A stretch of DNA of 64,000 nucleotides from Erodium maritimum (Eukaryota; Streptophyta; Magnoliopsida; Geraniales; Geraniaceae): assembly GCA_963921825.1 (NCBI GenBank), contig OY997594.1, forward strand, positions 40,232,557 to 40,296,556. Reading direction: 5' to 3'. Below the pieces are notes generated by a model that saw only the letters and a list, made by a program, of their open reading frames with translations, did no database searches and was not told where the DNA came from. Positions 1 through 54,808 of the stretch are shown piece after piece. Every line of letters begins with the position of its first letter. The first letter of the stretch is position 1. The translations under genes were made by a program, and so were the position numbers.

Positions 1-2309
1 TGAAAACAGGATATTAAAGGGAAAATGTTTTGTTAAAAAACAGAAGGAGGATAAAATAAAAGAATTTAAAATCAGAGTTGATTAAAGACGGTTTTTGGGA
101 CTATGAACGAAACCTGGACGTTTCAACCCAAACTTTAAATCGGACTAGGACGGGACAAAGGGGCAACGTTGAATCGAGCCTCGAGAACCGTGCCTCGAGA
201 TTCGTGCCTCGGAACCCGTACATCGGGAAACGGGCACCGGGTTCTATGCCCGAATACTCAAACCCGATTCGTCGTTTAATCCTTCTTTTAAACCGTTCGT
301 GTTAAAAAGACAACTTGTTGTTTATTTTGGACTTTACCGGTTCTGAGTGAAAGTTTTAACTGTTAAAAACCAGATTGGACTTCGCCCGAGAGCTCGGACT
401 CCGCCGAGAAGGCGAAGACCACTCCGGAACCCGTGTGAAGAACAAAGGAGAGACTAACCGGCTTTACAGCAGAGTTTTAGAGGAAGACCACAAGGTAGGG
501 GAAATCCTAACTACTCGAGTAATTCCATTATTAGTATGCCTAGTAGCTTAATAAAATTGTAAAGGTCCTAGAATTCCATATAGGATGCAAATAACTAGAA
601 TAACCGTCTTTCAATTATTAATAACCGGAAGTGTCTAGAATGAATGCTTAGGATGAGAATAACTAGTGTAATTCGCTTTCAATACTTGGGAATTGATTTA
701 CTGGTTGAGAGGCCGTGATGAGCCCTCGGATTAGTTTTGTGTTAGGATCACATGCTTGTTTGCCTAGTTCAGGATAAACTAAGAGTCTAATGAAACTAGT
801 TAGTTTGGATGATTGAATGTGGATTAATTGACTGACTGAACGGATGATCGAGTATGACTGGTTGTGCCAAACGGTGCAATCAGATGATCGATGTACCGAT
901 GGTTCGTGATAGGTAAGTATGACGGTAAGGGTAATTGTGGGTGTGAATCCCGTGTGGTGTGTATTGATGAACGTGTGTACTTATAAGATTGAGGATTAAG
1001 TGAATGTCTTTGTGTGTTGTGGCGAAAGTGTGATTCGGTAAGTGTTGATTGGTGATGAGTTATGGTGTGTTTCCCTTATTTATGTTCTTGATATGTTTGA
1101 TTGTACGGTTCGGTACTACACCGGGGGGGGGGGGTAATCCGGTGGTGTTGTGGTGGTTGGAGTTGACAGATTCTTCGTGATAATGGTTGAGTGTTGGAGT
1201 CTGACAGATTCTTCGTGATAATGGTTGAGTTGTGGTGGTTGGAGTTGACAGATTCTTCGTGATAATGGTTGAGTATTGGAGCCTGAGAGCATTGATTATT
1301 GGAGCCTGAGGGCATTGGTTATTGGAGATGGACTTTACGGGACAGTTGGATGGATTACTCTGTGACAAATGGTTACTGTGGTTTCACCCAAGTGTATGCG
1401 TCCTACGGGAGCACTACCTTGGTTCCCTATGACTTATGGTCCCTTGGAGGCATTTCCGAGAATTCCGACTATGAGCGTCCCTATGGGATGGTTTCCGGTG
1501 CCTCGGTGTATGTGCCACCTCTGGACCGAGGGAAAATCTGATATGATATGGGTACTCTGGTGGATCGGAATATGGGAACCGATGTGATCCCAGAATCTAT
1601 CCATGGATCGGAGGCTTGAGAAAGCGAGTGGTTGGCGTGATATTAATTGCTCCCATTTTAATAAGTTACTATTCGTTATAGTATTTCCATGGAATCTTTT
1701 GAGTTACTGTTATCTTTGGGAAAAGCGATAATATTTTATTACACTGATTCCATAACATTTCGTTGATTAATAGTATTTACTCGTTCCCAGTTGTGATGAT
1801 TTTCTATTTTATTATAATGTTCTCTATTTATTCTCTGGGAAGTTAACGTTACCCTTGTGAATGCACCGTTGTTGTCGTTGCTTTTTATTTGTTTATTATA
1901 TCTTTTGGTCTAAGGGTTTTAAACACTTTGTGACATCTAACTAAAGCAGGAAGCTAAAGTTGGAGGCTAAAGTTGTTTACGGTTTTCCCTACTAAGCGTA
2001 AGCTCACCCCTATTTGTTTATTTATTGTGTGTACAGGTGTACTTGAGATCTGGGGAATTCGAGGCTCGGGAGCTTCCGGTTGTCTTGAGGGTTGTATTAG
2101 AGATGGGTTGGTCCACATTGTTGAACTTTATTTACCTTATGTACTTGTCAAGTTTTTGACACTATATTTGAAATTTTGGATTAAATTATTGAGAAATATT
2201 TTAAACTCGCTTTCAGCTTTAAAAGAATTTATTACAGTTTTACTACTTTTATCTCAATCGTTTCAGGTCACGTCTCGAGTCCGGCCAAAACCGGATTTGG
2301 GGCGTGACA
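1..2309 (+). repeat. 5' LTR of the Tekay-like element (partial)
   Basis: Position 1 aligns with 25441 in the 3' LTR and the match continues to the shared end GGCGTGACA (2309 here; GGCATGACA at 27769 there). About 980 bases of this LTR lie left of the window. The two copies differ by scattered substitutions and by small changes in a tandem repeat of TTGACAGATTCTTCGTGATA type (about 1140-1320) and in a poly-G tract (12 G here, 24 G in the other). Small ORFs inside it are not conserved genes. Confidence 0.93.
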
Positions 2310-2312
2310 ATT

Positions 2313-3544: not shown

Positions 3545-3553
3545 TTCAAGATG

Positions 3554-3589
3554 GGCCAATTTACCCGAATGGCCTTTTTCTAGCAAAGT
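3554..3589 (+). repeat. Left terminal inverted repeat of the MULE
   Basis: It starts GGCC and shares ACCC.AATGGCCTTTT and a final AAAGT with the inverse of 20590-20625. It is directly preceded by TTCAAGATG. Confidence 0.88.
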
Positions 3590-3987
3590 CTTACGGTGGC
3601 AGACCACGTAATTTAGTTGAACTTATTTCTTTTATTTTTTATTTTCTTTTTATCAGTAAAATGCATGAGATTACATTTGTGCCCTTTTTGCACTTCAACA
3701 AAATTGCCTTGTCATCTTCAAACTATCCTTGTCAGCTCTTCAAATTATCCTAGTCAGCTTCAACTTCAAATTGAAACAACTTATGTTAAGTTGTGTCGTT
3801 TTTCCCTCCTTCAATTCTATCTTCTTCTTCTTCTTCGACTCAAACCAAAACCCCCCCAAAACCCAGAAACCTTCGACCCAACTGATCTCCAGCAAGGAAT
3901 CATCTCCGTTCTTCTCCAGCAAGGTCGAAGGATCGAGTTCCAGTTTCCGGCCATTCTCCACGAGCTACAAGTATTGTCGGAGCTGAG

Positions 3988-6444
3988 ATGGTAAGTAAGC
4001 CCTAATTGTTCTCGGTTTCCATTCCCTGCTTGTGCTTAGATAGGCTGAAATTTGGGTGAAATTGTGTTTAATTGTCGTGTAGCTACGTTGAATTCCTGTT
4101 TGAATGTAGAAATTTAGGGGGGTTTATTCGTTATGCTTTAGATACGGTTTAGGGGATTTCTAGGTCGTAAAATCAGGGGTTGTTCTAGCTCGCAATCTGG
4201 GAGTTGATATTCTAGAATGGATTGTTAGGTCATTACATTTATGGCTGTTATGGTTGGCAATCTTGGAATTAAAGTTCAATTTGAAATGAAGTGTGTTTAT
4301 AGTTTTGCAGTTCAATTTGAAATGAATTGTTTTCTGTTATTGTAATTACTTGTTTGCATCCTACCAGGCAAGTTTATCATCCCTAGAGAGTAGGCAAAAC
4401 TCAAATGTTGAAGAAAATGAAAGTTCTAGGTCAACTTCCTTCGACGGAGAAATTCCAAGTTATGATGAGGGTGAAAGTTCAAGTGCAAGCCTAGATAATG
4501 CACGATTAGTCCAAATTGAGCTGCCGGAGTTTAAACCTATTTTGGCCGAGAATGAACATTTCGATTGCAAGATATCAGTGAAGAGTCATGTAGGGGGAAC
4601 TTTTAAATTCATCAAAGGAGAACTGAGGTTAAGTGATGATGAAATCCACCTTCGCACCCTTAAAAAAGCTCCATTTGGTCATTTGATGGACATCCAACCG
4701 AGTGGTGACAATTATTGTCAAATTCCTTGGTCTCTGTTAGTTCGACAAATTGACTTGGATCGGTCGTCCGAAATCTGGTTCTTGGTCCAAGGAAGACCGA
4801 TCAGATTTTCTTTAAAGGAATTCTGTTTAATATCGGGGCTGAAGTGTGGAGCTTTTCCCGATGATAAACTTTAAAAAAAACAAATGAAGTCCAAAGTTTT
4901 GTCCTCGAAACACTTCCCGACACTAGATGCTAGTATGTTGACCTTAGAGAAGAAATTGACCCAGTTGGTTGGCGAACAAATGGAGGTTAGGCCTTCTACG
5001 AAACCTAATTGGGATATTATTAGGGTTTGCTTGTTGTTGATCATCGGGGGAGTATTGATGCCATTGGACAGACGCTTCCATAAGCTGGATCGAAAGTATT
5101 TGGCTTTAGTGGATAACTTGAAGATGTTCTACGCATACCCTTGGGGTAATCTGTCCTTCAATTATCTACTAAAACAGATAAAAGCAAAGAAGTTGAGAAA
5201 TAAAATGGTGGTGGCTCAAAAGAACCCAAGAAATGAGAGTAGTATGACATATGCCGGCTTCTTTCTTCCTTTCATAGTAAGTAACTAATTCTTCACACAA
5301 ATATTTTTTTAATATCGTAGTGTACATGATGTCTCTTATGATTTGTATCTTTTGTCGTAGGTACTTGCATTTGAATGCATACCATCATTAGCAACGAAGT
5401 TCGCAACAATTCGTGAAGACTTCGGCGTAGACTTGCCTAGAATTTTAAAATGGAAGACAACGTGGAGTAGAAATCCGTCTTACAGTGCTGTTAGGGAAGC
5501 ACTCTTACAAAGCTCACCGGAGGTTAGGAATTTAATTTTCATATAATATATGCGTTTTCATATAAATTTTGCACGTATTAAATTTTATTCGTTTTTGTGC
5601 TCAGGAAATAGTAAGTCTGTTGGTCCCCACTGAGGAAGAAAAGAAGCAGCCTTGGATGGAAGAATTCGTGAACTAAGAAGAAGAACATCCGAATCCGTTG
5701 TTGGACAACATGGTGGAAAAGATGGAGCAAGGCTATGTTGTTTCATTTCCACAAGATCAGACCGTCCATGTGGCACCGCCAACTCCACCAGCAGCACCAG
5801 AGGAGGTTCAGGTTCCTACGTCACACCCACAGTCCGATGATGGACTTTACAAGGCTGTCATGGAGCAAATTGAGCTGCTAAAGAACCAGGTCCTGTCAGT
5901 GCAGGCTGATGTGAAAAGTGTGTTGGAAGTGCAGAAGACACAATTTAAGGCGATCATGGGAGCTCTGTCAGCCCGGAAAAATGAAGACAGTCCATCGAAC
6001 CACTTCCGAGCAGGTTCTGAAGCATCATTTCCTGGGCAGGACAAACAGAAGAACCAAGAAGATGACATGGACATGTTCGATAATGTGATGGATGTTGGTG
6101 AGAAGGAGTTGAACCAAGAAGGTGTGGCCACTGGGGTTGAAGTGAACCAAGAATAAGAAGTGCCCGAGGAGGAAATGGATGTGAACCAACAAGAAGTGGG
6201 AGTTCCCACTGGTGGAGAGGATGGAGAGGAAGTTGATGTTGTAAAAATTGGAGTAGCCGTTGAAGAGGAAGTGAACAAACAACAAGAAGAAGAAGGAGTG
6301 GCAGCTGGACAAGAAGGTGTGCCCACTGTAGTTGAAGTGAACAAACAAGGAAATGTGACTGAAGAAGTTAATGAAGAAGTGACCAAACAAGTAAGTTTTG
6401 GTGAGGAAGTCAATGAAAGGGAAGATGTGAATGAAAAGGAACAG
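3988..6444 (+). pseudogene. MULE-borne DUF1985/Ulp1-like gene, 5' half
   Basis: The start codon ATG (3988-3990) is followed at once by a GTAAGT donor. The intron ends at 4367 and the frame continues MASLSSLESRQ. Exon 2 (4368-5276) contains a DUF1985-like region ending FSLKEFCLISGLKCGAFPDD. Exon 3 is 5361-5522. Exon 4 starts at 5605 and runs to the LTR A insertion at 6444, encoding a long acidic stretch with repeated EVNQE or EVNKQ peptides. All introns have GT-AG ends and all joins keep the frame. Three in-frame TAA codons interrupt it (4872, 5674, 6154) with no frameshift. With the 3' half the gene would encode about 1,000 residues. The DUF1985 plus Ulp1 layout is established for plant MULE cargo; its biological role is unknown. 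Confidence 0.85.
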
Positions 6445-8283
6445 TGTAATAACCACTCCCGGTCAACGCCAGTCAAACCTGCGAAAACAGGAAAATTTAA
6501 AATTTTTGAGCAGACACTGAATTGAACCGGAATTGGACCCCAAGGGTCACACCGGACTTAAGTTGACCCCGTTATCGAACAAAGTGAGTTCCGGGGGACT
6601 CAGGGCAACTTTCTAATCAATTTGGGAAATGTTGACTTTTCGTTGGAAAATTCAACCGAGCGACGTTTTGGTCCATTCGAGGACCGTTTTGGATCCAAAA
6701 AGCTTAGCCGTCGTCGCTGCGATCTTAGTTGAGCCATTTCCTTGTAGCCCGCCAAGTTTCGTAATTTCTTGGGAAAAGTGCCCGTTCGGGGCCCAAAACG
6801 TCCGTTTTTCGCGAATCTGATTGGAAAATATCAAGTAGATATTTTCCAAAAGGTGTGGGACCCACCTTGCCACTTGTCCAACAAGTGGTGGTGTTAATTT
6901 TGGGGGGAAAATGGGTGGTGAGGAAGACATGGCCGGCCACACATGTTAAAAGAAAAAAAAAGAGAAATGTGTTAGTTGTTTTAGAAAGAGAAAGAAGAGA
7001 GAAGAAAGGGAGAGAAGGAGAAGAAGAGAAGAGAGAAAGCTAGGGTTTGGAGCACTATTAACGCTCATCCAACCATGGGATCGTCTCAAGGCTAGGAGAA
7101 AGTGCACTCCCCTCGTTCTCCTCTACGGTATACACCGAACCGATTCTCGTTTTGATTAATTTTGGAAGTTAGGTTTGTGTAAAACTATTGGTTTAAGGTG
7201 GTTTTGATGTTGGGGTAATTGTTGGAGACGTTTTGGAGGTGTTTGGAGGGGAAGGATGACGTTTTCCGGTGACCGGAGGCTCGGGAGGAGCTCCGGCCAC
7301 CGTGGGTGGTGGCCGGCCGGCCATGGGGTGGCTGGCCGGAGCTGGGACCAGCCACCACCATGGTGGCCGAGCCCCATTTAAGCCCTAGGGCCCACGGCCA
7401 AGTTGGGCCGGGTGGGGCCCACGTGCTCGGGTGCTCGGGTTTAGGGTTCGGGAGGTTCAAAACGTTCCCCGGACCATTTATCCTTAACCGAATCGAAAAT
7501 TGGAATTAAATTGGAAAAGTTATAATTAACGGGTTTTAGAAACTTGAAACGGAAATTAATTGACTCGGGAATCGGAATTCGATTCGGTCAAGTACATTGG
7601 GACCCTTGAATTATTCTAAGACCGTAGAAACGAAAACGAGAATTTTTGGAGCCCCGGAAGGGCATTTACAAAACCCGGGCAGATTCGCCATGTCGGGCGA
7701 ATCGGGCGTTTACGGGTTCCTTATCGACAATGTCGAGTAATTGGGAAGTTTGGGAGTGATCGACATTGTCGGGGTTAAGTTTGGGCATCAAGTTTAATGA
7801 TTTTCAGCTTATTCCTGTGAGTTGTTAAGTGCCTTTAAATTGTGTTCTTTTAGATCGTGCCACGGACCGAGGCAAGGGAAAGCAGGGTGAGTGACTGAGA
7901 TCATCACCGGAGCTCGTTGGTTGGCTTTTGGGAGAACACGCACGAGGTAGGGAAAAGTAGCCGGATCTCGGCCCTGACTGGGGAAAGTTAACAGTAGAAT
8001 TGCATGTGACACCGGGGTGTCGTGGGTTAAGTAGGTTATCGAATTTTAGAAAGGCATGATACGGGAATGTAGCGAATATTGGAAAAGCATGTGACACTTA
8101 GTAGTGTCGTAGGAGCAGAGAACTTAGCATTATTAGAATTACTGGAGGCATATGACCATGCCCGGAGGTTGTTTGTGAAACTGTTGATATTAGGACTGTT
8201 GGAGGCATTGGTTATGCCGGAGGTTGTTTGTGTATTATTGTTGATGTCTCTGGTGGCCTTGTGAGCCCGTGTATTATTGTTGA

Positions 8284-8770
8284 TGTCTTTGGTGGCCTTG
8301 AGAGCCTGTGTTATTATTGTTGGTGTTTTGGGTGGCCATGAGTGCCCGTGGGGTTGTTGAACCCGTGTCTTTACCTTTGGTGTTTTGGGTGGCCATGAGT
8401 GCCCGTGGGGTTTTTGAACCCGTGTCTTTACCTTTGGTGTTTTGGGTGGCCATGAGTGCCCGTGGGGTTGTTGAACCCGTGTCTTTACCTTTGGGGTCTT
8501 GGGAGGCCGTGAGTACCCGTGGGGTTGTTGAACCCGTGTCTTTTTGGCGGTGTGTCTTGGAAGGCCGTGAGTACCTGTGGGGTTGTTGAGCCCGTGAGTG
8601 ACTGTTGGTAGTTTTGAGAGGCCGTGAGTGCCCGTGGGGTTGTTGAGCCCGTGAGTTACTGTTGGTGTATCTTGGGAGGCCGTGAGTGCTCGTGGGGCTG
8701 TTGAGTCCGAGTTTTACTGTTGGTGTCTTGGTGGCCATGAGTGCCTGTGAGTGTTGAACCTGTATTGTTA
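8284..8770. repeat. 57-bp minisatellite inside LTR A
   Basis: GCCCGTGGGG recurs at 8344, 8401 and 8458, then with more variation to about 8760. The unit encodes nothing conserved; ORFs in it on both strands are by-products of the repeat. Confidence 0.85.
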
Positions 8771-8814
8771 CTGGTTGTTGAACTTGCTTGTGATTGTGAT
8801 TGTGATTGTGATTG

Positions 8815-9055
8815 CGGATCCCGGTAGGTTGCAAGCATTCGTTGGCTGGCCTGACCAAGTTTGAGTATCAACGGGTTGCAAGCATTCTTTGGCTGGCCTG
8901 ACACAGTTTGAGTATCAACAGGTTGCAAGCATTCTTTGGCTGGCCTGACACAGTTTTGAGTATCAACAGGTTGCAAGCATTCTTTGGCTGGCCTGATCCG
9001 AGTTTGAGTATCACAGGTTGTGAGCATTCTTTAGCTAGCCTGATCCGTGTTCGTA
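8815..9055. repeat. 47-48-bp minisatellite inside LTR A
   Basis: GAGTATCA recurs at 8863, 8910, 8958 and 9006, each followed by a TTGCAAGCATTC-like stretch. It adjoins the 57-bp array but has an unrelated unit. Confidence 0.85.
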
Positions 9056-9352
9056 TGAGTGGGGGAGGTTACGGAGCAGCTGGTATGCGATCATTTGTGA
9101 TCTTGTTTGGTGTGCGACCCTTTGTGATCTTGGGTGTTGCGTGGTGGTCTTTTGAGTCTTTGGAAGAGGTTGTCATCGTTGTGTCGGGTCTACTTAGCGT
9201 GTTTGAGTGTTGAGTCGTTGAGGAAAGTAACTGTGGGTGTGTGTCAGTCGGAGTACTTGGGTTGGGGACAGTGTTCCCCGGTGTTGACTTTGTTATTGGT
9301 GTTACCGGCATTGTCTGCTAATTATGCCGTATTCAGTCTGTTATCCGTGGTT

Positions 9353-9368
9353 GTGAGCGAACGCTCAC
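9353..9368. promoter_or_regulatory. Conserved LTR palindrome
   Basis: GTGAGCGAACGCTCAC is followed by CCCTAGCTGC and a pyrimidine tract ending CTACAG. The same block is found in LTRs B (34742), C (50710), D (54514) and F (56840, reverse). A shorter version, TGAGCGTAAGCTCA, is in the Tekay-like 3' LTR (27453). Its function is not known; conservation across copies argues for a promoter or RNA-processing role. Confidence 0.6.
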
Positions 9369-9647
9369 CCCTAGCTGCTTTTCCTACAGGTACCGTTCGC
9401 AGGCTGGACTAGGTGAGCTTCTGAAGCTTGAAGAGCTAGAAGCGGGATTCTGGGCTTATTTGAGTCTAGCGACGTATATCATGTTTTTTTCCACTTGTTG
9501 GGACGTGTTTTAAGTTGTAATTATTTATTTTGTTGAACAGTTGGTGTTTTTTTAAAGTGAATTATAAAAATGGTTTCAAAGGTGTTTATTATTTTAAAAC
9601 GTTCGCGTCCCGAGTTTGGTTTACTGAAATTGGGGCGTGACAAACAG

Positions 9648-10941
9648 TCCGTGGAGAAGGAAGTAGTTGAGGTGAACCAAGAGGTCCATGAGCTGGCTGC
9701 TGTTGAAAAGGCCAAGGAAATTCCAGCTAGAGTGACTAGAAGTAAGCGTTTTGCAAAAAAGGTGAAGTCTAACACAAAGAAGCCTCCCACAAGGGCCACA
9801 AGGAGGGCTGCCACAAAGAATCCTGCCATAAGCAAGCGGAAGAGAGAAGAATCAAGCTCGACGAAAGTCTCGGCTCCTGCTATACACGAGCGGGACAGCG
9901 AAGCAACAAAGGAGAAGAAGAGGAGACTTAAAGGGAACTTAGAGAAGTTGAACCCTCTTCTTATGCCTGATCAATCCACAACCCAGGTTTATAAGGATGT
10001 GATCGCAAAACTGAAGAGGAAGAAGATACCCTTAGAGGAAATCCCAAAAACACCTTACGGAGATGTCACCTTGTCTTACTACACAACTCTCAGCGGGTCA
10101 AACGAAAAGTTGAATGCAAGGGTAAGGTGGAACCTTAATTATTTGCATTGTTTTCAATTTAATTAAAATTTAATATAATTCACTTTCATGTATGCAGCAC
10201 ATGAATGATTTCCTGTTTGGAATTAGAAAGCGGCAGGGGCATTGCAAGAAGCACTATGCACAGAATGTTGTGGTGTTAGACGCAGAATTTGCAGATGCCG
10301 TCAAGGAAGGGCACATGGCATGGAGTAAAAGTGAGAACCCCCAAGTAGCAGATCGCTTAATGGAATACGTTAGGGGCGATCTTCCGATCTTTGGTGGTAA
10401 GGAATGGGCAGGTTGTGACAGAATATTTTTTCCTTTGCTGGTGGACGAAGTATCACAGCATTGGGTTATGGTGGAGGCGGACGTAACTCTCTGCAAGCTC
10501 ATAATGTATGACTGCTATAGAACAGTTGTCCCGGATAATTCCATTTCTGGAGTGATGGAACCTTTTGTGGTGATGTTCCCACAAATTCTCATTGCTGCCA
10601 AGAATTTTCACGCGGAATTACTCCATACGGGCACCAAATGGACGTGTGAAAGGCGGTGTGATTTGCCTCAAGCGGAGCTGAGGTATGGAATCTTCTACAA
10701 CTTTGCATCTTATAACATTTTTTTGTTCTATAACTCTTACCCTTACTTAGTAGTCACTAATTTGCATTTATTGTGCAGAGGAGACTCGGGTGTTTATGCG
10801 CTGAAGTATTGCGAGCTGGAGCTCCAATCATTTCTGATCCCTATTTATATGCATCCAAAGCATGTCTCTGTTTACGGCTTGAAGATGTGTGTGGACATAG
10901 CAACACAATTCGAGAAGTTGTTGGATTACAAACATGACTGA
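9648..10941 (+). pseudogene. MULE-borne Ulp1-like cysteine peptidase domain, 3' half
   Basis: It resumes the frame of 3988-6444 after LTR A. A basic segment with KRFAKKVK and KRKREE, likely nuclear-targeting, is followed by exons 9648-10121, 10198-10682 and 10779-10941. The C48 (Ulp1) peptidase layout is visible: the His in SQHWVMVEAD, the Asp in MYDCY, then a Gln in DLPQ just before the last intron. At the nucleophile the sequence reads RGDSGVYALKYCE, so Ser (codon 10786-10788, TCG) stands where the family has Cys in a D-C-G motif. The stop is TGA at 10939-10941. Known C48 enzymes remove SUMO or similar modifiers; with Ser here this copy is probably inactive as a thiol peptidase. Confidence 0.88.
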
Positions 10942-11516
10942 GTTTTGATATGATCATTTAGGATAACACTTTATTGGTTTCAATGACTGCTAATTTGAAT
11001 ATTTGAGGTGGATTATAATTTTAATTGCACACTTTGATGTGAATTTTATTATTTTGGTGACCAAGATTGGTTTCTAAATCTAAACTGCTTTCATGTATTA
11101 GTATAATGTTAGCCTTATGTTGAATGGATTGTACTGGTAATTGGTTTTATACTATTTTGTACGTTAGGTTTATTTGGAAACTGAAGATAAGAGGACAGAT
11201 TCACGGTCGGAATCTAATTCTGTTCCATTCTGGGAACATATTTCCAATCTGACATGCCAGTCTAGAACATATGTTTCTAGAATGGTTTTGAAGTATAGAA
11301 AATATATGACAAGTATGTATGTGAATTCTAGAAAATATATTTCTAGAATGATTTTCAATTCTAGAATATTCATTTCAAATTAATGAATCTATGTGGCAAT
11401 CGGTTGTAATTGGATTGTGAACAGTTGTGTCTTGTCAAATTAATTACAGTTATAGGGCCATGCCTATACATGAACTGAAGAGTCTTTTGGAAGATGGGTG
11501 TAATTATCACTTGTAA
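10942..11516. other. 3' flank of the Ulp1-like gene
   Basis: AT-rich and without credible coding sequence. From about 11260 to 11375 the octamer TTCTAGAA and near-copies recur, forming short palindromes. The segment ends at the 9-bp TSD of the nested Pack-MULE-like element (11517-11525). Confidence 0.6.
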
Positions 11517-11525
11517 TAACTTCTT

Positions 11526-13341
11526 GGGAAAATTTCATTTTACCATCCTGTCAAACATTTAACTTCAGTTTGATACCCTGGCATAAATTTTTATCAGTTT
11601 CATACCCAAACCAAACATTTAATTTCACTTTCATATCCAACCGGGTAAAATGTCCAAAATACCCCTAACTATTACTCAAATTTTCATCTCATGTCATTGG
11701 CTCAGAATTTGAAAAGAAGTGAAATGACGATAATACCCTTCATTGTTTAGGGTGTTAAACTGAAAATTTCAATAATTTTAAAGCAAAATCAGTTTTTTTT
11801 TATAAATTCAATTTTTATTTTCAAAAAATCAGATTTTAATTTTAAAAATATATATATAAATCATTTTTTTATAAAATCATTTTTTAAAAATAATTTTTTT
11901 TTATTAAAAACAGTTTTATTCCAAAAATCATTTTTATTCATATAAAAAATTTAATTAATATTTTTTTTATTTTATTTACCCTTCTCTCTCCTCAACTTCG
12001 TCTCTCTCTCCTCCATTTTCAATCCTCCCATGGCTTCACACCAGATCTAAACAAATAGAACATCTCCGCCACTCCATATTTTCCAAACTCCATCACTATA
12101 TTTTCCAAATTTAAATTGATTTGAACGGTAATGAAACCAAATTTGTAATGATATTTATATGAGTTGTGAATAAAGCTAATTATGAAACTAAAGGCCTGAA
12201 CCCAAAATTCTGAAGCTTGAGTTTGGACTAAAGATCTTAAAACCCATAGATCTATAGAACTCATAAACCAAAAATCAACCAAACTAGATCTGTAAGCATA
12301 TACAATAACCATAGATCTGTAAAACCCATGCCTCAACAATGAACTCCTTCGGAAATAAAATTCAACAAAACATAAAACAGATCTGCCATGAGAAGCTCGT
12401 GGCAGAAGCGGGAGGAGGAGCTTCACCGCCGCCAACCAGCTCCGTCGTGACCGTCCCGTCGAACCCGAGCTCGTTTCCCCCAAACACCATAACCGACCAA
12501 GAGAAGAAGAGATCGAGGTCGCGAAAAGGGATCGAGTTCGGTGCCTGAGCCCAGGGGCTATAGTGGAAATCGTGGTCGCGAAAAGGGATCGAGTCCGGTG
12601 TCGGAGCCAAAGACTCCATCTTCGCCGGCGATCTGGTTTTATTTCACGTGAGATTAGGTTAATTGCATATTTGTCAGTGGAGAGAGAAGCTTGAACCAGA
12701 GAGTTCATCGTGTGGTGAAAATGAAAAAAAAAACTAATTTACTAATTAATAGTTTAATTCTTTGGTTAATGATTTAAGGAAAAAAATGATTAAGGATTTA
12801 AGGAAAAAAAATGTTTTTATACTATTTTTAAGATTAAAAAATGAATTTTAAAAATTAAAAAATATTTTTCATAAATAAAAACTGAATTTTTAAAAAAATG
12901 TATTTTTAAAAATAAAAAATATTTTTTATGAATAAAAAATGAATTAATAAAAATAAAAAATAAAAAATTATTTTTGATAAAAAAATTATTTTTATAAAAA
13001 AAAAACTTATTTTTATGTATTTTTAAAATTAAAATCTTATTTTTTGAAATTAAAAATTGAATTTATAATAAAAACTGATTTTATTTTAAAATTAGTGAAA
13101 TTTTCAGTTTAACACCCTAAACAATGAAGGGTATTATTGTCATTTCACTTATTTTCAAATTCTGAGCCAATGGCATGAGATGAAAATTTGAGTAATAGTT
13201 AGGGGTATTTTGGACATTTTACCCGGTTGGGTATGAAAGTGAAATTAAAAGTTTGATTTGGGTATGAAACTAATAAAAATTTGTGCCAGGGTATCAAACT
13301 GAAACTAAATGTTTGCCAGGGTGGTAAAATGAAATTTTCCC
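11526..13341. mobile_element. Pack-MULE-like non-autonomous element
   Basis: It is flanked by the perfect 9-bp duplication TAACTTCTT (11517-11525 and 13342-13350). The ends form inverted repeats of about 245 bp (11526-11770 and 13097-13341) that begin GGGAAAATTTC and match at roughly 94 percent by eye. The interior has AT-rich arms and a GC-rich centre with no transposase. Long terminal inverted repeats, a 9-bp TSD and an unrelated GC-rich insert are the hallmarks of Pack-MULEs. It differs in its ends from the host MULE, so another transposase must have moved it. Confidence 0.92.
12339..12660. other. GC-rich insert of the Pack-MULE-like element
   Basis: A GC-rich stretch between AT-rich arms, with ORFs on both strands (plus 12339-12548, minus 12362-12619) and a duplicated GTCGCGAAAAGGGATCGAGT motif (about 12518 and 12573). 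It looks like a captured host fragment, but I do not recognise a protein family and cannot choose the coding strand. Confidence 0.45.
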
Positions 13342-13409
13342 TAACTTCTTTAACCCAACGTGTCATGTCAAAATAAATTTTTGTAATCATGTAACTGCTT
13401 TTCCAAGCC

Positions 13410-13417
13410 TATATAAG
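13410..13417 (+). promoter_or_regulatory. TATA box of the acidic-protein gene
   Basis: TATATAAG lies 136 bases before the ATG at 13553 and 69 bases after the end of the Pack-MULE-like element. A TTC microsatellite, typical of plant 5' untranslated regions, occupies about 13490-13523. Confidence 0.6.
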
Positions 13418-13552
13418 AAACCAATCTAGAACTCATGCAACCCACACTGAAAATCCATTCTGCTTCCTAAAAGGTCTTGTTTGAGTTGTCTCTTCTTCTT
13501 CTTCTTCTTCTTCTTCTTCCTCTTCGTTTGCAACTCCCCCCATCTTCCATCC

Positions 13553-14119
13553 ATGGACTCACCACCACCACCATCCCCACCACCGAACTCCCCCGAGGCT
13601 TGGTTGTTTGACGAGTCCAAACCAAGCCTGTACCCCGCTCTCTCTCCCTCGTCTGCTGACACCAACATCAGCTGTAGTGACTCCGACGACGACGACAGTC
13701 GTAAAAGGAAGCGGGAAGAGTCTGACTCCGACGCCCCCGCTGACGAGACCTTCTCCGGGGCGGAGGAGGAGGGGGACCCTGACGACGACCCGGAGGTCGC
13801 CGAAAAGGAGTCGTCCGAGTCCGACGACGACCCGTGGGCGGATGTGGAGGAGGACTCCGAGGAAGAGGAAGAGGAGGAGGACTCCGAGGACGAGGACGAG
13901 GAGGACAAGGACAAGGACAAGGACAAGGACAAGGACAAGGAGGAGAACAAGAAGGAGAAGGAGGAGAAGGACCCAGCCCCAGCCCCAGCACCAGTAGCAG
14001 CAGCCCCAGCCACGCTGGAAGAAGAAGAAGATGATCCTTATGACGCCCTGTTTGTTCCTGCAAACCCGGCCGGCGACCCTAGTGAAAGTGTCGGCTCCAA
14101 CTGGCCTTCGTGGGACTAA
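13553..14119 (+). CDS. Small highly acidic protein, unknown function, MULE cargo
   Basis: An intact ORF of 188 codons. I chose the ATG at 13553, which starts MDSPPPPSPPP, over the one at 13481, because the latter adds only a poly-Phe run translated from the TTC microsatellite. It has a proline-rich start, a short basic RKRKREE patch that could target the nucleus, long Asp/Glu runs, a (KD)n repeat, a (PA)n repeat and a C-terminal NWPSWD. Third codon positions are mostly G or C, unlike its AT-rich neighbours, which hints at capture from a host gene. No family is recognised. The extreme acidity resembles histone-binding or activation domains, but that is only a resemblance. Confidence 0.65.
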   Translation: MDSPPPPSPPPNSPEAWLFDESKPSLYPALSPSSADTNISCSDSDDDDSRKRKREESDSDAPADETFSGAEEEGDPDDDPEVAEKESSESDDDPWADVEEDSEEEEEEEDSEDEDEEDKDKDKDKDKDKEENKKEKEEKDPAPAPAPVAAAPATLEEEEDDPYDALFVPANPAGDPSESVGSNWPSWD

Positions 14120-14148
14120 CTAACTTCTTCTATAAGAAGTTAGTTAGT
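14115..14148 (+). terminator. Perfect 15-bp hairpin over the stop codon
   Basis: Arms 14115-14129 and 14134-14148 are perfectly complementary with the four-base loop CTAT. The stop codon TAA of the acidic ORF (14117-14119) lies in the left arm. Whether it acts in mRNA 3' processing or stability, or is a relic of an inverted duplication, cannot be told. Confidence 0.55.
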
Positions 14149-14725
14149 TAGTTTATGTTTTATATATATGCCAGTTTGCAGGGCCAGAGCTTCCTTTTGG
14201 GAAGCAACAGATATTCCACGTTTGTTGCTTTTGTTATGTTTCAGTGTGACTTTTGGGAAGTTTGACTTATAATTACTTAATGGTTGTTTTTGTTATCTAG
14301 GATTGGGTTCACTTTTTTGTATGTCCAAATATATATATATGAATATCAATTCTAGTTTATGCCTTATTGTTTTGTTATGTATGCTTTCCAGTTCAGTGTT
14401 TAGTACATGTTAGTATCTGGAAAATGTATGCCAATTTGAACTGCCAATCTGGTTCTTTTCAGTTTCAGTAATTCTAATCCAGTCCGGAAACCATTTTCCA
14501 ATCTGAACTGTCAGTCTAACATACAATTGTAGCTACTTATCCACAAACAACATACAATTGTAGCTACTTATCCAAATACAATTGTAGCTACTTATCCAGA
14601 TACATTCGTACATTCATACAACAACAACATTCTAATCCAGTCCGGAAACCATTTTCTAATCCACAAACAACAACATACAATTGTAGCTACTTATCCAAAT
14701 ACATTCGTACATTCATACTACTAAC
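14149..14725. other. Noncoding spacer with short repeats
   Basis: No gene is seen. ACAATTGTAGCTACTTATCC recurs near 14524, 14552, 14578 and 14679, and a 24-base block beginning TCTAATCCAGTCCGG occurs twice (near 14472 and 14630). It separates the convergent acidic and GRF genes. Confidence 0.6.
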
Positions 14726-15477
14726 CTACTTATCCAAAAATTGATAAAAAAATCCTACAACAACTAACATGATCACTGTTTTGGCTTTGTCTCTTTGAGC
14801 ATCCAAATCCAATTGTAGCTTCAGAATCCTTTCCTCATCATGTTTTTTTTGTTCAAACACAATAGAAAGCTCAGCTTCCATCCTTGCAATTGTATCTTCA
14901 CAAACTTTCATTTTCTCAAGCAATTGCAATTCCCCATCTTCTATCCTTGCAACTCTATCTTCTAAAACGCCAATTGGGTAAATTGGCCCTGTATCGTCTA
15001 ATATTTTGTTGAATTGCTCTGACTTCCCAGCTGACTTTGTCCCACATTCGAATTTGGGTCCATCAATCCAGCGAAAAAATTCGCATTTCCCTTTGGTTCC
15101 TTCATTCTACCAAAAAAACAAAACAAACCCTAATTTCAGCATAAATTTCAATTCCCACATCAATCAAAAAGGAAACCTTAATTTCAGCACCAATTCCTAA
15201 ATTAGGAATACCTAATCTCAGCAGGACTTACCAAATCAACAACAAACTATAATTTCAGCAGGATTTCCCAAATCAAATCACCCTAATTTCAGCTGGAATT
15301 TCCAAATCTAAAAAGAAAAACCCTAAGCCTTTGACTTACCATGAAATTACCACACCCAACGAACCTTCTTCTTGGATTCATCTTCGTGGTTGAGGTTCGT
15401 ACAGGAGTTTCAACTCCACAGTGGCAAAGGCCCTTCTTCTTCGCGTTCGACTTCTTCATGAAGAACACAATTTTCAC
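14726..15477 (-). CDS. GRF-type zinc-finger protein with coiled coil and membrane tail
   Basis: Two exons on the minus strand (15477-15340 and 15106-14726) join in frame at a GTAAGT donor and a TTTTTTTGGTAG acceptor, giving 172 residues. Exon 1 encodes the first half of a GRF zinc finger: CHCG, then RTSTT and NPRRRFVGC. Exon 2 supplies the rest, KCEFFRWIDGPKF. A coiled coil with heptad-like ARMEAELSIVFEQKK follows, then a hydrophobic C-terminal segment (VIMLVVVGFFY). GRF fingers bind single-stranded DNA in several repair proteins, and short GRF plus coiled-coil plus tail proteins are common in plant repeats. Its place beside a transposase suggests MULE cargo. No stop codon interrupts it. Confidence 0.75.
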
Positions 15478-17104
15478 GTTCGCGCCTTAATGTTCAAATA
15501 AAATCTGTTTGAAAACGTGTGGATTGGGTTGAAATATATTATCGTTAACAAAGTAACGGATTCTGTCAAAAAACTAACTAACGGCTGGGTGTAAAACTAA
15601 AAATAACGGCTGTTTGCTTTACTATTAAGTTTACAAACCATTTTAATGTGTTTAGTTTAATAAACCATTTTAATAGTCACCCATTTTCTCTTATTTTAAT
15701 ATTTTTTTTTAACAAACCATTTTAATTCATTTGTTTTGTTGCTTTTATATATTTTGGAAGTGTTCTTGAACTTCCACAGTTCGATAATTTTTTTTGAACT
15801 GTTTTTTTATATTATTTTTTTGGAGGATGGAAGTCGTATTTTTTATTTTAAGTTTTTTTTAGAAACCATTTTAATGTGTTTTTTTTGGTCTTTCAAATAT
15901 TTTGGAAGGATATCCAAACTTTAATAGAATTGGTAAAAAAACAAATATTGTATGCAACAAATGATTGAACACAATTTCTAGTGTTCTTTACCTTGTACTC
16001 GTGTTTCTGGGAAGCAACAATTATGTTCTCATTTTGTCTACAATCTGCTGCTCTAGAAAATAATTTCTAGATCTAGAAGAACTTTTATAGATTTTCACTT
16101 AATTTTGCAGTTTGTATGTCTGGTCTAGAAGTTATTGTCCAGGTTCTCATGAAAGTCTGAAATTGTTATTAGCGTTCTAGACTCCATTCTAGAAACAATA
16201 TTCCAATTTGGATTGTTAGTCTGGTTATTGTCTTGAGTATCTGGAACACCAGACAGCAAATTCAGCATTTCCCCGGAAATTAACTATTCTAAAGAAATAT
16301 AAGCAACAAATGGAATAGAATATAAGAGAATCTAGAACATGCAAACTTAACAATGACAACGTGGTCCTGAACTTCCACAGTCCGATAATTTTTCTTGAAG
16401 TGCTTTTGTATATTATTTTTTTGGAGGATGGAAGTCGTATTTTAGATTTTAATTTTGTTTAGAAACCATTTTAATGTGTTTGTTTTGGTCTTTTAAATAT
16501 TTTGGAAGGATATCCAAACTTTAATAGAATTGGTAAAAAAACAAATATTCTATGCAACAAATGAATGAACACAATTTCTAGTGTTCTGTACCTTGTACTC
16601 GTGTTTCTGGGAAGCAACAATTATGTTCTCATTTTGTCTACAATCTGCTGCTCTAGAAAATATTTTCTAGATCTAGAAGAACTTTTATAGATTTTCACTT
16701 AATTTTGCAGTTTGTATGTCTGTTCTAGTAGTTACTGTCCAGGTTCTCATGAAAGTCTGAAATTGTTATTAGCGTTCTAGACTCCATTCTAGAAACAATA
16801 TTCCAATTTGGACTGCCAGTCTAGACACATTATTCCGATTTGGACTGCTAGTCTGGTTACTGTCTTGAGTATCTGGAACACCAGACAACAAATTCAGCAT
16901 TTCCCCGGAAATAAACTATTCAAAAGACATATAAGCAACAAATGGAATAGAATACAAAAAATACAATAACAATCAATTGTTCATATAACAAGCACAAATT
17001 GTTCATAAAATACATAATACATCCCAATTCCAAGTTTCTCAACAAGCACAAATTGTTCATAAACTGGTTACCATCCCAATCCAATTACATAAAAACTGGC
17101 CTTA
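15478..17104. other. Noncoding spacer with a tandem duplication
   Basis: AT-rich region between the GRF gene promoter side and the 3' end of the transposase gene. It holds a duplication with a 600-bp period (15768-16950) and repeated CTAGAA motifs. No credible coding region is seen. Confidence 0.65.
15768..16950. repeat. 600-bp tandem duplication inside the MULE
   Basis: GAACTTCCACAG at 15768 and 16369, ACAATTTCTAGTGTTCT at 15971 and 16571, and GCGTTCTAGACTCC at about 16172 and 16772 share a 600-base offset. The second unit has an extra block of about 45 bases near 16815. Confidence 0.88.
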
Positions 17105-19717
17105 TTACATAATAGTTGCCATTTCACATGTTGTCCTTGTATGACCAATTTCACCACATAATCCACATTTTCTTATTCTTTGAGGCCGACGTGGCTCACC
17201 GGCGGATGGGAGTCTCTTGACTTGTGGTCTACCGCGCTTTAGTGGTAGTTTTGGAGGGATAACCTTTATAGCTGGTTCGGAGCTAAGAGAAACCCAATCT
17301 CGTTCCGCTGGTACGGGATAAAGGGTTTCAAAATAAGTCATTCTCCATAAATTCAGTGAGTAATAGTCGGAGCAGTACTGATAACAATCAAGGTTCTTCA
17401 AATTGGCAGCTGCTATTGCATGTACACAAGGCAATTTATCCAAGTCGAACACACGACATTCACACCGCTTCTCAAGTAAATTAACTATGGTCACATGTTT
17501 GTTACCAACAACCTGAAACTCTGACGCGTTGAGCTGTTTCACTTTCAAGGTGGCAGTAACTCGTGTCCTTACCCGAAGGACTTTCTCTGCATATTGAGTC
17601 ATCTGTGTACCTGGAGGTATACATGCAATGTGATGGCGACGTCTATTGAACCACTCTGAAACTTTCTCCTGCATAACATCAAGCAATGCAATGACAGACC
17701 ACTCTCTTGCCTCTTTCAATGCTGCGTTTATCGACTCCACTCCATTTGTTGTCATGATATTGTACCGAGCACCTCTGAAGTGTGCTCTAGCCCATTGATG
17801 TACCGCAATATTTGTTTCTTCAAGATACTGGATGGCTGATGGGTAGGATTCAGTCATAATTTCGTACAATCTGTTGAACTCAGATACCCGGTACGCTTCA
17901 GCGCATTTTTTGAAAGCATTTAGAAGCCCTTCTCCAGCACCAACCTTTTTTTTGGAATGAAGTCGTACATTTCGTCCGAGATGCCACCTACAGTGTCCAT
18001 GATCTGCTTTGCGGTAGATCTTCAACCTCCCATTGATGATACTCTGATTCCTATCAGAAAGAATTACCAAATCATCTTCATCTGGTATAATTTCCTATAA
18101 CTTCTCAAAAAACCATGTCCATGACGCATCATTCTCTAAGTCTACAATTCCCCAAGCAATAGGATATTGATGATGATGACCATCTTGTGCGGTTGCAATA
18201 AGCATTACTCCTTTGAACCGTGTCTTCAAGAAGGTTCCATCAACCGCAACGACTTTTCTCATTGTCTTCCATCCTCGAATACATGCAACATATGCTATAA
18301 ATACATATTTGAACCTGCTTTCTTCATCCACCTTTAGATGAGTGATTGTTCCTGGATTCTTCTGTACAACCATCTCCAAATAAGCCGGAAGGAGTGCATA
18401 ACTTTTCTCGGGATCCCCTCTAAGATAAAAGTTGGCAAGTCGTCTAACCTTCCAAGCTTGCCAGTATGGTATCTCGGTGCTTGACTCAGTGTCATTTTTC
18501 AGAAATATTTGAATAAGTCTTGGACACGGTGTCGTCCTTTGACCCGCACATTTTTGCCTCACGTATTCAGCAACATATTTAGTAGTTGCTTGCCGGCGGT
18601 GGAGCTTCGTTGCATTGGCAGAGCAATGGTGAGTATTGTAATATGTTCTGACGGAGAACTGCCTTGTAGTTCCAATTTTGGCTGTCCGCATTCTCCATCC
18701 ACAAGGTTGGTTAGCACATTTTGCCACAAACACCGTCTTGTTAGATTTTTCAGCACGAAAATCGAACCCGTCCTTCACAGCAATATGTGACAAAAACGTC
18801 TAAAACTCTTCTTTCGTCTCAAATGTATCACCAACTGCTAAACCTGACCCATCTTGGAAACCGATCGAGTTTACTTCGGCATCAAGCACTTTCGTCGGAT
18901 AAAAGTGGTCTGCAGGATCAAAACTTGATCTGGATTGTTCTTGTTCTGGATACTCTCGTTCGTTTTCCATATCTTCCAATCCCACATCCTCATCCACTGC
19001 CACTTCTTCCTCATCAACTTCCACACCCGCTTCCACCTCTTCCATATCATCATCATCATTAGAACTAAATTGTTCAAGAATCTCTTCTACGCCGCCTTGC
19101 GTATCAGAAATATAATCATCATCAACATAATCATCATCAACACTTAACTGTGCTGGAGTAGGATTTGACCCCGCTAGAGTCGCTACTGCTTCTACATCAG
19201 TTCTACCCCTACTACCAGCTCGACGTGGGAGATGAACGCGCTGCCCACCGTTGTTAACACTCATAAAATCAATGGAATCCCCCGTATTTATTGGACTACA
19301 CATGTCCCGACCAAAGTACTCATCACGTACAACGGGGGCAGCAGGAGGATTCATTTCCATTTCCCTACCACCGGTATGTTTGTTAATGACCTCCACACGC
19401 AGTATGTTGTTTCGGGTCCCAATTCCATATTCCACAACAAAACCAAGAACAGTTTCATCATCTTCTAAAATAACTGGATCCATTCCTCCAACATCGTCAG
19501 GCAGGTCCGGTACTAAGTAGCTCACTTTCAATTCCTTTTCATTTTTGTCCACTCCGGTCTTCTCATACAATTTATCCCATAACCTCTTCTTCAATGATGT
19601 ATCTTCATCATCAAGAAGGATATTCATAGACTTTGAATTGCAAGGTATCCAACTATACTTCCCGTTCTCGTTCAAATATTGTCCACCATAAGAAGCATAT
19701 ACTAGCACTCGAACCAT
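17105..19717 (-). pseudogene. mudrA-like: MURA-type MULE transposase with two nonsense codons
   Basis: One frame runs from ATG 19717 (MVRVLVYASYGGQYL; an intron acceptor TTGTAG lies just before it) to the stop at 17105, about 870 codons. It is broken only by TAG at 18800-18802 and at 18095-18097. Order: an N-terminal MULE domain, a long acidic linker, a zinc-binding region with CANQPCGWRM and THHC, then the catalytic core with first Asp in VAVDGTFLK, second Asp in ILSDRN, the CRWHLGRN block and probable Glu in TNGVESINAAL. A SWIM finger (CECRVFDLDKLPCVHAIAA) and a CCHC knuckle (CGLCGEIGHTRTTC) close it. It would cut and rejoin MULE ends. Confidence 0.94.
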
Positions 19718-20589
19718 TCCTACAACAATTAGGAACATATAAATATAAAGCTACAATTTACCATAACAGACATCTACAAATATTTACATATCGATTTTAA
19801 AACAATTTCAAACAAAAAGGCCTTTGTACGTAAAGGACTTGTAAAACTATTTTCAAACAAAAGCCAAAAGGGGTAAAGGCATAAATATACATGAGTTAAT
19901 AACAGATTGATAATACATTCTGATACGGTAAAAGACCGGATGGACACCCGTTCTAGTTTACATGAAACCAGAATGCCAAACCGATCTGGTAACAGCTCAT
20001 ACCAGAACGTGTCGATCTGAACTATTACCATCGGCATAGTACGAACTCAAACCATATAATCACGAAATTGAGGTCCGAATGAATCAATACTAGCTCGAAA
20101 TATGTTTCAAAACCATTCCATGATAACATTAACTACGTTTAAACATACATATTGCTCAAAATCTACAAATTAGGTCTTTCCAATTACTTACCTCGAGCTA
20201 GGGTTTTTCTGGGCAGCCTTCAATGACAGTGGAACAATCAATTGAGCAGCTCGCACGCCAAATTGAAGACGAAACAATGGGTAGGAGGACAAACAATGCA
20301 CAGGACAGCATCAATTGAAGAAGAAAAACGAGGATGAAGGAGAAGCGAACGAGAATGGGGAAAAACTCGATTTCCCCCAATTCAGCTGGATTTGGCGCGA
20401 ATTGGCTAACGACTGCTGACGTGGATTTGGCGCCAACAGGGCAAACGAAAGCTGACGTGGAACAAAATTGAGTATAGAGTTGGGTGCTGACATGGATCAT
20501 CCATGAGGGTAATGTTGGTAGTTGGAAAGAGTCATTAATGAGGAGGCTAGGTAGGTGAGAGCATTGAATGTGGAGGCCATTTTAATTAT
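19718..20589. other. Transposase 5' region and right subterminal region of the MULE
   Basis: AT-rich, without coding sequence of note. It should hold the transposase promoter and a 5' untranslated intron, since the ATG directly follows an acceptor-like TTGTAG. Near the end is a duplicated TTGGCGC motif (20393 and 20427). Confidence 0.5.
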
Positions 20590-20625
20590 ACTTTCCTTCT
20601 AAAAGGCCATTTGGGTAATAAGGCC
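20590..20625 (-). repeat. Right terminal inverted repeat of the MULE
   Basis: Read on the minus strand it starts GGCCTTATTACCCAAATGGCC and matches 3554-3589 at about 28 of 36 bases. TTCAAGATG (20626-20634) follows. Confidence 0.88.
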
Positions 20626-20634
20626 TTCAAGATG

Positions 20635-27400: not shown

Positions 27401-27769
27401 AGCAGTTTTATTATTAAACTTGGAGGCTAAAGTTGTTTACGGTTTTCCCTACTGAGCGTAAGCTCACCCCTATTTGTTTATTTATTGTGTGTACAGGTGT
27501 ACTTGAGATCTGGGGAATTCGAGGCTCGGGAACTTTCGGTTGTCTTGAGGGTTGTATTAGAGATGGGTTGGTCCACATTGTTGAACTTTATTTACCTTAT
27601 GTTAATTGTCAAGTTTTGACATTATATTTGAAATTTTGGATTAAATTATTGAGAAATATTTTGGACTCGCTTTCAACTTTAAAAGATTTTATTACAGTTT
27701 TACTACTTTTATCTCAATCGTTTCAGGTCACGTCTCGAGTCCGGCCAAAACCGGATTTGGGGCATGACA
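24460..27769 (+). repeat. 3' LTR of the Tekay-like element
   Basis: A complete LTR of 3,310 bp from TGTAAAACTCC to GGCATGACA. Its right two thirds match 1-2309. A 24-base poly-G tract lies at 26593-26616, and the palindrome TGAGCGTAAGCTCA at 27453-27466. CT-rich, GC-rich sequence at 24740-25240 gives several ORFs on both strands that I regard as chance. Confidence 0.93.
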
Positions 27770-34900: not shown

Positions 34901-35032
34901 TTGAGTTGTAAATAATTATTTTGATTAACTACTTGATGGTTTTAAAGTGATTTATTTAAAAGGATTGAAAATGTTTTATTGTTTTAAACGTTCGCGTTCC
35001 GAGTTCGGTTCTACTGAATTTGGGGCGTGACA
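31983..35032 (+). mobile_element. Solo LTR B (3-kb gypsy-type family)
   Basis: It starts AGTAATAACC (first base mutated from T) and ends GGGGCGTGACA, flanked by ACCCC on both sides (31978-31982 and 35033-35037). It splits the CACTA transposase between DGVV and THDMS codons. It has a 16-base poly-G tract at 32471-32486, and repeats of about 57 bp from 33740 to 34230. Confidence 0.95.
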
Positions 35033-35143
35033 ACCCCATCATCCCACAACATGTGAAGCTTATCAATCAGTGGTCCAATCAGGTTATTCAAACATTTTCC
35101 AGGCGACTTCGAACCTATATATGTATATATATATATATATATG

Positions 35144-54803: not shown

Positions 54804-54808
54804 AATTC

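What the first reader, a model, noticed from the sequence alone, without database searches (positions are those of the whole stretch)
3554..20625. Large MULE with four genes around a MURA transposase
Besides the transposase, the element carries a DUF1985/Ulp1-like gene, a GRF zinc-finger, coiled-coil, membrane-tail gene, and an acidic GC-rich ORF. Ulp1-like cargo is known for Kaonashi and CUMULE elements; GRF plus acidic cargo in the same element is, to my knowledge, not a standard description. The gene set suggests a module for handling SUMO-type modification, single-stranded DNA and chromatin during transposition, but that is inference.
Basis: partly seen in the sequence, partly recalled or inferred. 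Interest (0 to 1): 0.75.

Follow-up and report, generated by a model that had tools for sequence, protein, structure and literature searches.

The report
Four-gene Mutator-like transposon family
A large jumping gene in what looks like a plant genome carries, beside its own transposase, three further genes that travel with it as a set; one of them is shared with a sister family and one is found almost only in this family, so the element looks like a toolkit built up step by step.

Summary
3554-20625 is one Mutator-like element (MULE): 36-bp terminal inverted repeats, a perfect 9-bp target-site duplication, and four genes: DUF1985-Ulp1 (+), acidic ORF (+), GRF zinc finger (-), MURA transposase (-). 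This copy is dead: a 3.2-kb solo LTR splits the Ulp1 gene, another MULE-type element sits before the acidic gene, and MURA and DUF1985 carry stops. Of 10 pairs of matching ends about 12 kb apart in the same genome, 9 carry all four genes in this order, so GRF and acidic are real cargo. Of 72 close GRF copies, 72 lie within 12 kb of a Ulp1 or MURA hit. A sister family (MURA 60-79% identical) has Ulp1 and a homologous acidic gene, but GRF near only 2 of 47 MURA copies, so acidic is the older and GRF probably the later part. The Ulp1 domain has Ser where the catalytic Cys is expected in 24 of 25 copies, which argues against SUMO-protease activity. DUF1985, variable non-coding repeats rich in TTCTAGAA, and mutation scars of methylation suggest a VANC-like anti-silencing module (inferred). 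New variant of a known kind; novelty judged on a partial library.

The parts
3545..3553 (.). target-site duplication, left (TTCAAGATG)
   Evidence: identical to 20626-20634
3554..3589 (+). left terminal inverted repeat
   Evidence: 78% complementary to 20590-20625; similar ends in the other full copies
4326..5288 (+). DUF1985 part of the DUF1985-Ulp1 gene; one premature stop at 4872-4874 in this copy
   Evidence: Pfam PF09331; the range ends in what I take to be an intron
5340..6444 (+). linker part of the DUF1985-Ulp1 gene with repeated peptide motifs
   Evidence: 89-97% identical in the copies compared; no clear Pfam family
6445..9642 (.). solo-LTR-type insertion (TG...CA), direct repeat AACAG at 6440-6444 and 9643-9647; not part of the MULE
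   Evidence: not found in the 9 other full copies; similar repeats elsewhere in the window
9648..10941 (+). C-terminal part of the DUF1985-Ulp1 gene; Peptidase_C48 exon to 10682, last exon 10779-10941; expected catalytic Cys is Ser
11261..11366 (.). 33-bp non-coding tandem repeat with TCTAGA motifs
11526..13341 (.). nested MULE-type insertion, TIR about 440 bp, target-site duplication TAACTTCTT; not part of the larger MULE
   Evidence: not found in the 9 other full copies
13553..14119 (+). acidic ORF, 188 aa, conserved ends and variable acidic middle
14726..15106 (-). GRF gene exon 2: last zinc ligand, heptad-repeat region, hydrophobic tail; contains a TIR-like site at 14964-14989
15340..15459 (-). 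GRF gene exon 1 (three zinc-ligand cysteines)
   Evidence: splice sites inferred from sequence
15760..16957 (.). non-coding tandem duplication of about 600 bp (15760-16325, 16361-16957) rich in TCTAGA; the number of units seems to differ between copies
17105..19738 (-). MURA transposase gene, cut by two in-frame stops in this copy
   Evidence: Pfam DBD_Tnp_Mut, MULE, SWIM
20590..20625 (-). right terminal inverted repeat
20626..20634 (.). target-site duplication, right (TTCAAGATG)

Best explanation
It is a dead copy of a TIR-MULE family whose uninterrupted form is about 12 kb and carries four genes that move together. MURA cuts and pastes the element at the GGCC...ACCC ends, leaving 9-10 bp duplications (anatomy shown, activity inferred). 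The DUF1985-Ulp1 protein most likely works like VANC of VANDAL elements: a sequence-specific DNA-bound factor that lifts host silencing from its own family, with the Ulp1 domain kept as a non-catalytic binding module because its Cys is replaced by Ser (inferred). Its likely landing sites are the TTCTAGAA-rich repeats in the non-coding gaps (inferred). The acidic, probably disordered and nuclear protein is an older partner of that system, perhaps a histone-chaperone or activation-domain type cofactor (inferred). The GRF, coiled-coil, membrane-tail protein was most likely added later, in this lineage, with unknown benefit (its distribution is shown; gain rather than loss in the sister is inferred).
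For: Ends and duplications: (10-bp perfect duplication in 7 of 10 end pairs, 9 bp with one mismatch in 1, none found in 2). Gene set: 9 of 10 end pairs about 12 kb apart; in 15 further loci picked around acidic hits no locus departs from the order and 14 of 15 have at least one GRF exon. Co-occurrence: GRF within 12 kb of 65 of 74 close MURA copies; a Ulp1 or MURA hit within 12 kb of 72 of 72 close GRF copies. Distances between copies correlate among MURA, GRF, Ulp1 and DUF1985 (rho 0.72-0.76, 0 of 199 permutations). Acidic gene in both families: 36 of 36 close sister-type acidic rows within 12 kb of Ulp1 or MURA, 0 of 36 with GRF within 6 kb. [quoted passage not shown] TTCTAGAA 3-8 per element in 9 copies against 0.41 in shuffles of 4 of them. 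Transitions at CG and CHG sites are 2.4-7.9 times those at other sites in 8 of 9 exon sets, as methylation leaves.
Against: No expression, methylation or binding data. DUF287, the other VANC domain named in PMC5735166, was not found by Pfam in the pieces scanned. The TTCTAGAA clusters could be a by-product of repeat slippage. Within the family GRF exon 2 shows no purifying selection (dN/dS 1.02), and MURA and Ulp1 are also weakly constrained (0.68-0.85). The acidic gene was found within 12 kb of only 44 of 74 close MURA copies, though its search lists were capped. The sister spacer was read at one locus only (L044). Two MURA copies at 76-77% do have GRF nearby.
Confidence: 0.5

Rival explanations
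1. The Ulp1-like protein is an active SUMO or SUMO-like protease that protects MURA or chromatin proteins.
For: Peptidase_C48 match E 6e-15 with the last exon joined; H and D at the expected spacing and a nearby Q are present in the window copy.
Against: The expected DCG motif reads with Ser in 24 of 25 copies (23 of 24 matched, one more) and Leu in one (E5), and Ser in the sister locus. The catalytic position is recalled from Ulp1 and placed by motif; no solved structure was matched.
Confidence: 0.12
2. Acidic and GRF are passengers: captured host genes, as in Pack-MULEs, kept by hitch-hiking.
For: GRF exon 2 evolves near-neutrally within the family; 20 GRF genes at 55-70% identity have no listed MURA or Ulp1 hit within 12 kb and could include a host source.
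Against: The acidic gene sits in the same place in two families that differ by 26-28% in MURA protein, and its ends are nearly invariant.
Confidence: 0.25
3. Acidic and GRF are transposition helpers: the acidic protein as DNA mimic or chaperone for the transposome, GRF binding single-stranded DNA or ends during repair.
For: GRF zinc fingers bind single-stranded DNA in known proteins (recalled); a TIR-like site lies in GRF exon 2 in 10 of 10 full copies examined.
Against: GRF is near only 2 of 47 sister MURA copies, so that family seems to do without it; no biochemical evidence; the TIR-like site may be a relic.
Confidence: 0.2

Closest known systems
VANDAL elements with VANA, VANB, VANC (PMC5735166, passages seen; PMC10398659, listing and a term search without hits)
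   Same: MULE with several genes; DUF1985 protein; tandem repeats in non-coding parts that differ between related elements
   Different: TIR of 36 bp here; Ulp1 domain fused; DUF287 not detected; acidic and GRF genes; VANB could not be compared because no sequence of it was at hand
Kaonashi (KI-MULEs) of Arabidopsis (described in PMC2528002 and PMC13317346, passages seen)
   Same: Ulp1-like gene opposite in orientation to mudrA
   Different: Kaonashi are described as non-TIR with three coding genes; here TIR and four genes, with Ser at the expected catalytic position
Ulp1-bearing TIR-MULEs of grapevine and melon (PMC2528002, 12 of 35 passages seen)
   Same: TIR-MULE, 9-nt duplication, Ulp1 sequence downstream of the transposase in either orientation
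   Different: no acidic or GRF gene mentioned in the passages seen
Pack-MULEs (recalled, and PMC2528002 passages)
   Same: MULE ends around extra gene sequence
   Different: the full copies read here keep their transposase gene and the extra genes recur in 9 of 10 end pairs

Membership tests
Mutator-like elements (MULE) | MURA-type transposase | tested here: met
   DBD_Tnp_Mut 2.7e-9, MULE 5.8e-9, SWIM 9.9e-9
Mutator-like elements (MULE) | 8-11 bp target-site duplication | tested here: met
   9 bp in the window; 10 bp in 7 of 10 end pairs, 9 bp with a mismatch in 1, none found in 2
TIR-MULE | terminal inverted repeats | tested here: met
   36 bp, 78%; short for a TIR-MULE
Kaonashi | Ulp1-like gene in reverse orientation to the transposase | tested here: met
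Kaonashi | non-TIR ends | tested here: not met
   TIR present in the window copy and in the 9 other full copies
VANDAL / VANC | DUF1985 protein | tested here: met
VANDAL / VANC | DUF287 in the same protein | tested here: not met
   no Pfam match in the exon pieces scanned, which cover most but not all of the gene
VANDAL / VANC | element-specific motif repeated in non-coding regions | tested here: inconclusive
   TTCTAGAA enriched and clustered; no binding data
VANDAL / VANC | removes DNA methylation from its family | not testable with these tools
   needs methylation data
Active C48 (Ulp1) protease | catalytic Cys | tested here: not met
   Ser in 24 of 25 copies, Leu in 1; the position rests on recalled motif and Pfam end position, not on a structure
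GRF zinc finger | profile match and four ligands | tested here: inconclusive
   E 7.4e-5 but 23.2 bits under the 25.9 cut-off; the four cysteines are present in the window copy, one is lost in each of two copies, E4 and L039
Pack-MULE | captured gene fragment, no transposase | tested here: not met
   MURA present

The most novel reading that the evidence does not exclude
MULEs of this clade carry a stepwise-built anti-silencing machine: a DUF1985 pseudo-protease that reads a self-made repeat code, an old acidic nuclear cofactor that I know from no other transposon, and, in one lineage, a membrane-tailed GRF protein, perhaps to place the element at the nuclear envelope or to handle single strands.
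Probability: 0.25. Interest if true: 0.78.

Novelty: new variant of a known kind. Interest (0 to 1): 0.52.

Why it matters
How transposons escape host methylation is open, and VANC is a rare known route. Two families here share an acidic gene next to a DUF1985-Ulp1 gene, and one of them also has a GRF gene. That gives a natural comparison for asking which parts of such a module are needed, and a candidate DNA motif to test. It also warns that Ulp1 domains in MULEs need not be proteases.

Tried and rejected
Separate insertion of the acidic and GRF genes into the window copy: rejected, since they recur in the same place and GRF divergence tracks that of MURA and Ulp1; for the acidic gene the correlation is weaker (0 to 11 of 199 permutations reach it). 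CpG decay as the cause of the acidic gene's fast divergence (86% mean identity against 95-98% in the other coding blocks and 90-95% in repeat-rich non-coding blocks): rejected as the main cause, since its CG and CHG transitions lie within the range of the other exons while its transversions outside those sites are 2.4-5.2 times as frequent; slippage and D/E interchange fit better. Protein searches for GRF and acidic relatives gave none; that database seems to hold few plant proteins, so this says little. No solved structure matched the Ulp1 domain. The surroundings of the 20 GRF genes at 55-70% identity could not be read. A first try at aligning the sister acidic gene used a wrong frame and was replaced. 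The paper search listed mostly chemistry papers. The genome search with DUF1985 did not complete. Structure prediction was not run: spliced proteins are not accepted and the acidic protein looks disordered.

Limits: match lists are capped (40 of 98 candidates scored; 150; 147), so absence counts are not proof. Rows dropped by hand before the position counts: 4 second pieces of GRF loci (105 of 109 rows used), 5 second pieces of Ulp1 loci (145 used), 24 second pieces of sister-acidic loci (74 of 98 used, two of which may be one locus). In one search one stop per copy in the DUF1985 range I ascribe to an intron at its end, and the MURA range includes its terminal stop. One search failed in the script; one search printed its results, then failed on saving.
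Full report
The window lies in a 763-Mb genome of 40 contigs, unnamed; that it is a plant is my inference from the families present. Two later insertions are nested in it: a solo-LTR-type insert at 6445-9642 with direct repeat AACAG, and a MULE-type insert at 11526-13341 with duplication TAACTTCTT. Neither was found in the 9 other full copies. This copy is broken: the Ulp1 gene is split, MURA is cut by two in-frame stops, and DUF1985 carries a stop at 4872-4874.

Genes. Pfam finds DUF1985, Peptidase_C48, DBD_Tnp_Mut, MULE and SWIM, and a GRF zinc finger below its cut-off. Joining the last Ulp1 exon raises C48 from 42.1 to 56.1 bits. The acidic ORF has no Pfam match above a cut-off.

Copies. 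The end pattern has 133 matches in the genome, 4 for the pattern read backwards; only the first places were listed. From these I took 10 pairs of facing ends, 11.8-12.7 kb apart; pairs of other lengths were not read in full. Nine carry DUF1985-Ulp1, acidic, GRF and MURA in one order; the tenth (E1) matched only the LTR probe. The acidic DNA search scored 40 of 98 candidates, giving 40 loci. Of the 15, all have Ulp1, 14 have at least one GRF exon, and 13 have MURA (one only a fragment) within the stretch. Because these 15 were chosen by the acidic gene they do not test its presence. Duplications of 10 bp are perfect in 7 of the 10 end pairs, 9 bp with one mismatch in 1, none found in 2.

Genome-wide positions. 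Of 74 MURA copies at 79% identity or more, 65 have GRF and 63 have Ulp1 within 12 kb. Of 72 GRF copies at 79% or more, all 72 have a Ulp1 or MURA hit within 12 kb; of 9 at 70-79%, all 9; of 20 at 55-70%, none; of 4 lower, none. Of 72 Ulp1 copies at 79% or more, 58 have GRF within 6 kb and 46 an acidic gene. Distances between 19 copies agree across MURA, GRF, Ulp1 and DUF1985 (rho 0.72-0.76, 0 of 199 permutations); with the acidic gene rho is 0.45-0.72, reached by 0 to 11 of 199 permutations, 36 pairs. The genes therefore travel together, most clearly the four exon sets other than acidic.

Sister family. Of 47 MURA copies at 60-79% identity, 29 have Ulp1 within 12 kb, on the opposite strand in those I looked at by eye, with a median distance of 4.2 kb against 6.0 kb in this family; 2 have GRF, and those two, at 76 and 77%, may be diverged members of this family rather than of the sister. 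I read the spacer of one sister copy (L044). It shows no GRF match better than E 0.055 but an acidic ORF of 260 aa in the same place and orientation relative to Ulp1. It shares PPPSP..W.F and PED..FSG..EEGDP with ours; alignment scores of 105 (window) and 114 (L039) were reached by 1 of 9000 and 0 of 9000 block shuffles. Searching the genome with it returned both families, including the window's own acidic gene at E 8.6e-5. Of the 36 rows at 52% or more, 36 have Ulp1 or MURA within 12 kb and 0 have GRF within 6 kb; of 38 weaker rows, 35 and 21; three have neither Ulp1 nor MURA listed nearby. Of the 47 sister MURA copies, 35 have an acidic gene within 12 kb; of 29 at 45-60%, none has an acidic gene, GRF or Ulp1 in the lists. 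So the acidic gene belongs to the common set of the two families. GRF is either a gain in this one or a loss in the sister; a GRF too diverged to detect in the sister is not excluded.

Selection. Copies are about 96% alike in coding blocks and mostly drift: dN/dS 0.62 (DUF1985), 0.70-0.83 (Ulp1), 0.68-0.85 (MURA), 0.61 and 1.02 (GRF exons 1 and 2). The acidic ORF is open from the start site to the common C-terminal region in 12 of 25 copies; of these one begins TTG and two end five residues early, leaving 9 of 25 strictly whole. Its ends are nearly fixed (nonsynonymous-to-synonymous ratio of changes shared by three or more copies 0.08 and 0.00, from 5 and 3 changes) while its middle varies (1.48, 27 changes). 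Against the sister locus, MURA gives 0.43-0.49 and the Ulp1 end 0.28. The acidic middle diverges faster than any other aligned block of the element, by transversions and indels more than by CG decay.

Ulp1 active site. The H and D of the triad are 17 residues apart in the window copy, as in yeast Ulp1 (recalled). The next motif reads GDSG where Ulp1 proteases read DCG (recalled). The codon is Ser in 23 of 24 copies matched (TCG or TCA) and Leu in one, E5; the copy not matched, L039, reads DSG; the sister has TCA. I take the domain to be non-catalytic. This is a prediction; the catalytic position was not checked on a structure (one search gave no relative).

Non-coding repeats. TTCTAGAA occurs 3-8 times per element in 9 full copies against 0.41 in dinucleotide shuffles of four of them, TCTAGA 15-22 against 3.3. 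They cluster after the Ulp1 gene and in a tandem unit of about 600 bp between GRF and MURA. In the sister spacer other tandem repeats of 31-32 bp stand between MURA and the acidic gene. In VANDAL elements VANC binds short motifs in non-coding tandem repeats that differ between related families, and VANC has DUF1985 and DUF287 (PMC5735166, passages); DUF287 was not found here. The likeness is in layout, not in motif. CG and CHG transitions are 2.4-7.9 times those at other sites in 8 of 9 exon sets, the short GRF exon 1 being the exception at CG, so I infer that the copies were methylated.

Literature. Ulp1 in TIR- and non-TIR MULEs is known (PMC2528002, PMC13317346, passages). My searches listed no paper on a MULE with GRF or acidic cargo: 'GRF zinc finger' with 'MULE', one unrelated paper; 12 listed; 20 of 190 listed; none; 12 of 790 listed; these are listings, and papers were opened only where passages are cited. 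Subscription papers, among them the original Kaonashi and melon reports, were not at hand, so novelty is judged on a partial library.

Verdict. Real, four-gene, family-wide; the gene set differs between two families in a way that suggests it was built in steps. The anatomy is close to certain; the anti-silencing mechanism is an inference with moderate support.

Noticed in passing
window 14964-14989: A 26-bp stretch inside GRF exon 2 is 88% complementary to the element's left end. In 10 of 10 full copies the best internal match to an end lies there, score 14-23 against at most 13 in 30 shuffles of one copy. It may be a relic of an older element end or a second transposase site.
   Followed up: partly
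window 6445-9642, about 31984-35033, 48008-51001, 51568-54805, 56563-59604: A family of solo-LTR-like repeats of about 3 kb recurs in the window; the copy in the MULE has an internal 57-bp tandem array.
   Followed up: no
window 11526-13341: Nested MULE-type element of 1.8 kb with long TIR and a GC-richer middle, perhaps a captured gene fragment; its longest ORF has no Pfam match above a cut-off.
   Followed up: partly
genome, e.g. G000:C4:58131567, C7:37624939, C5:25455338: Twenty GRF genes at 55-70% identity, many with an open frame of about 115 aa, without a listed MURA or Ulp1 hit within 30 kb: another transposon's cargo or a host family.
   Followed up: no
window 1-2310 and 25441-27770: Direct repeat of 2.3 kb, 93% identical.
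   Followed up: no
G000:C1:37744790-37757509: A pair of matching ends in which only the LTR probe matched, perhaps an old element overwritten by retrotransposons.
   Followed up: no
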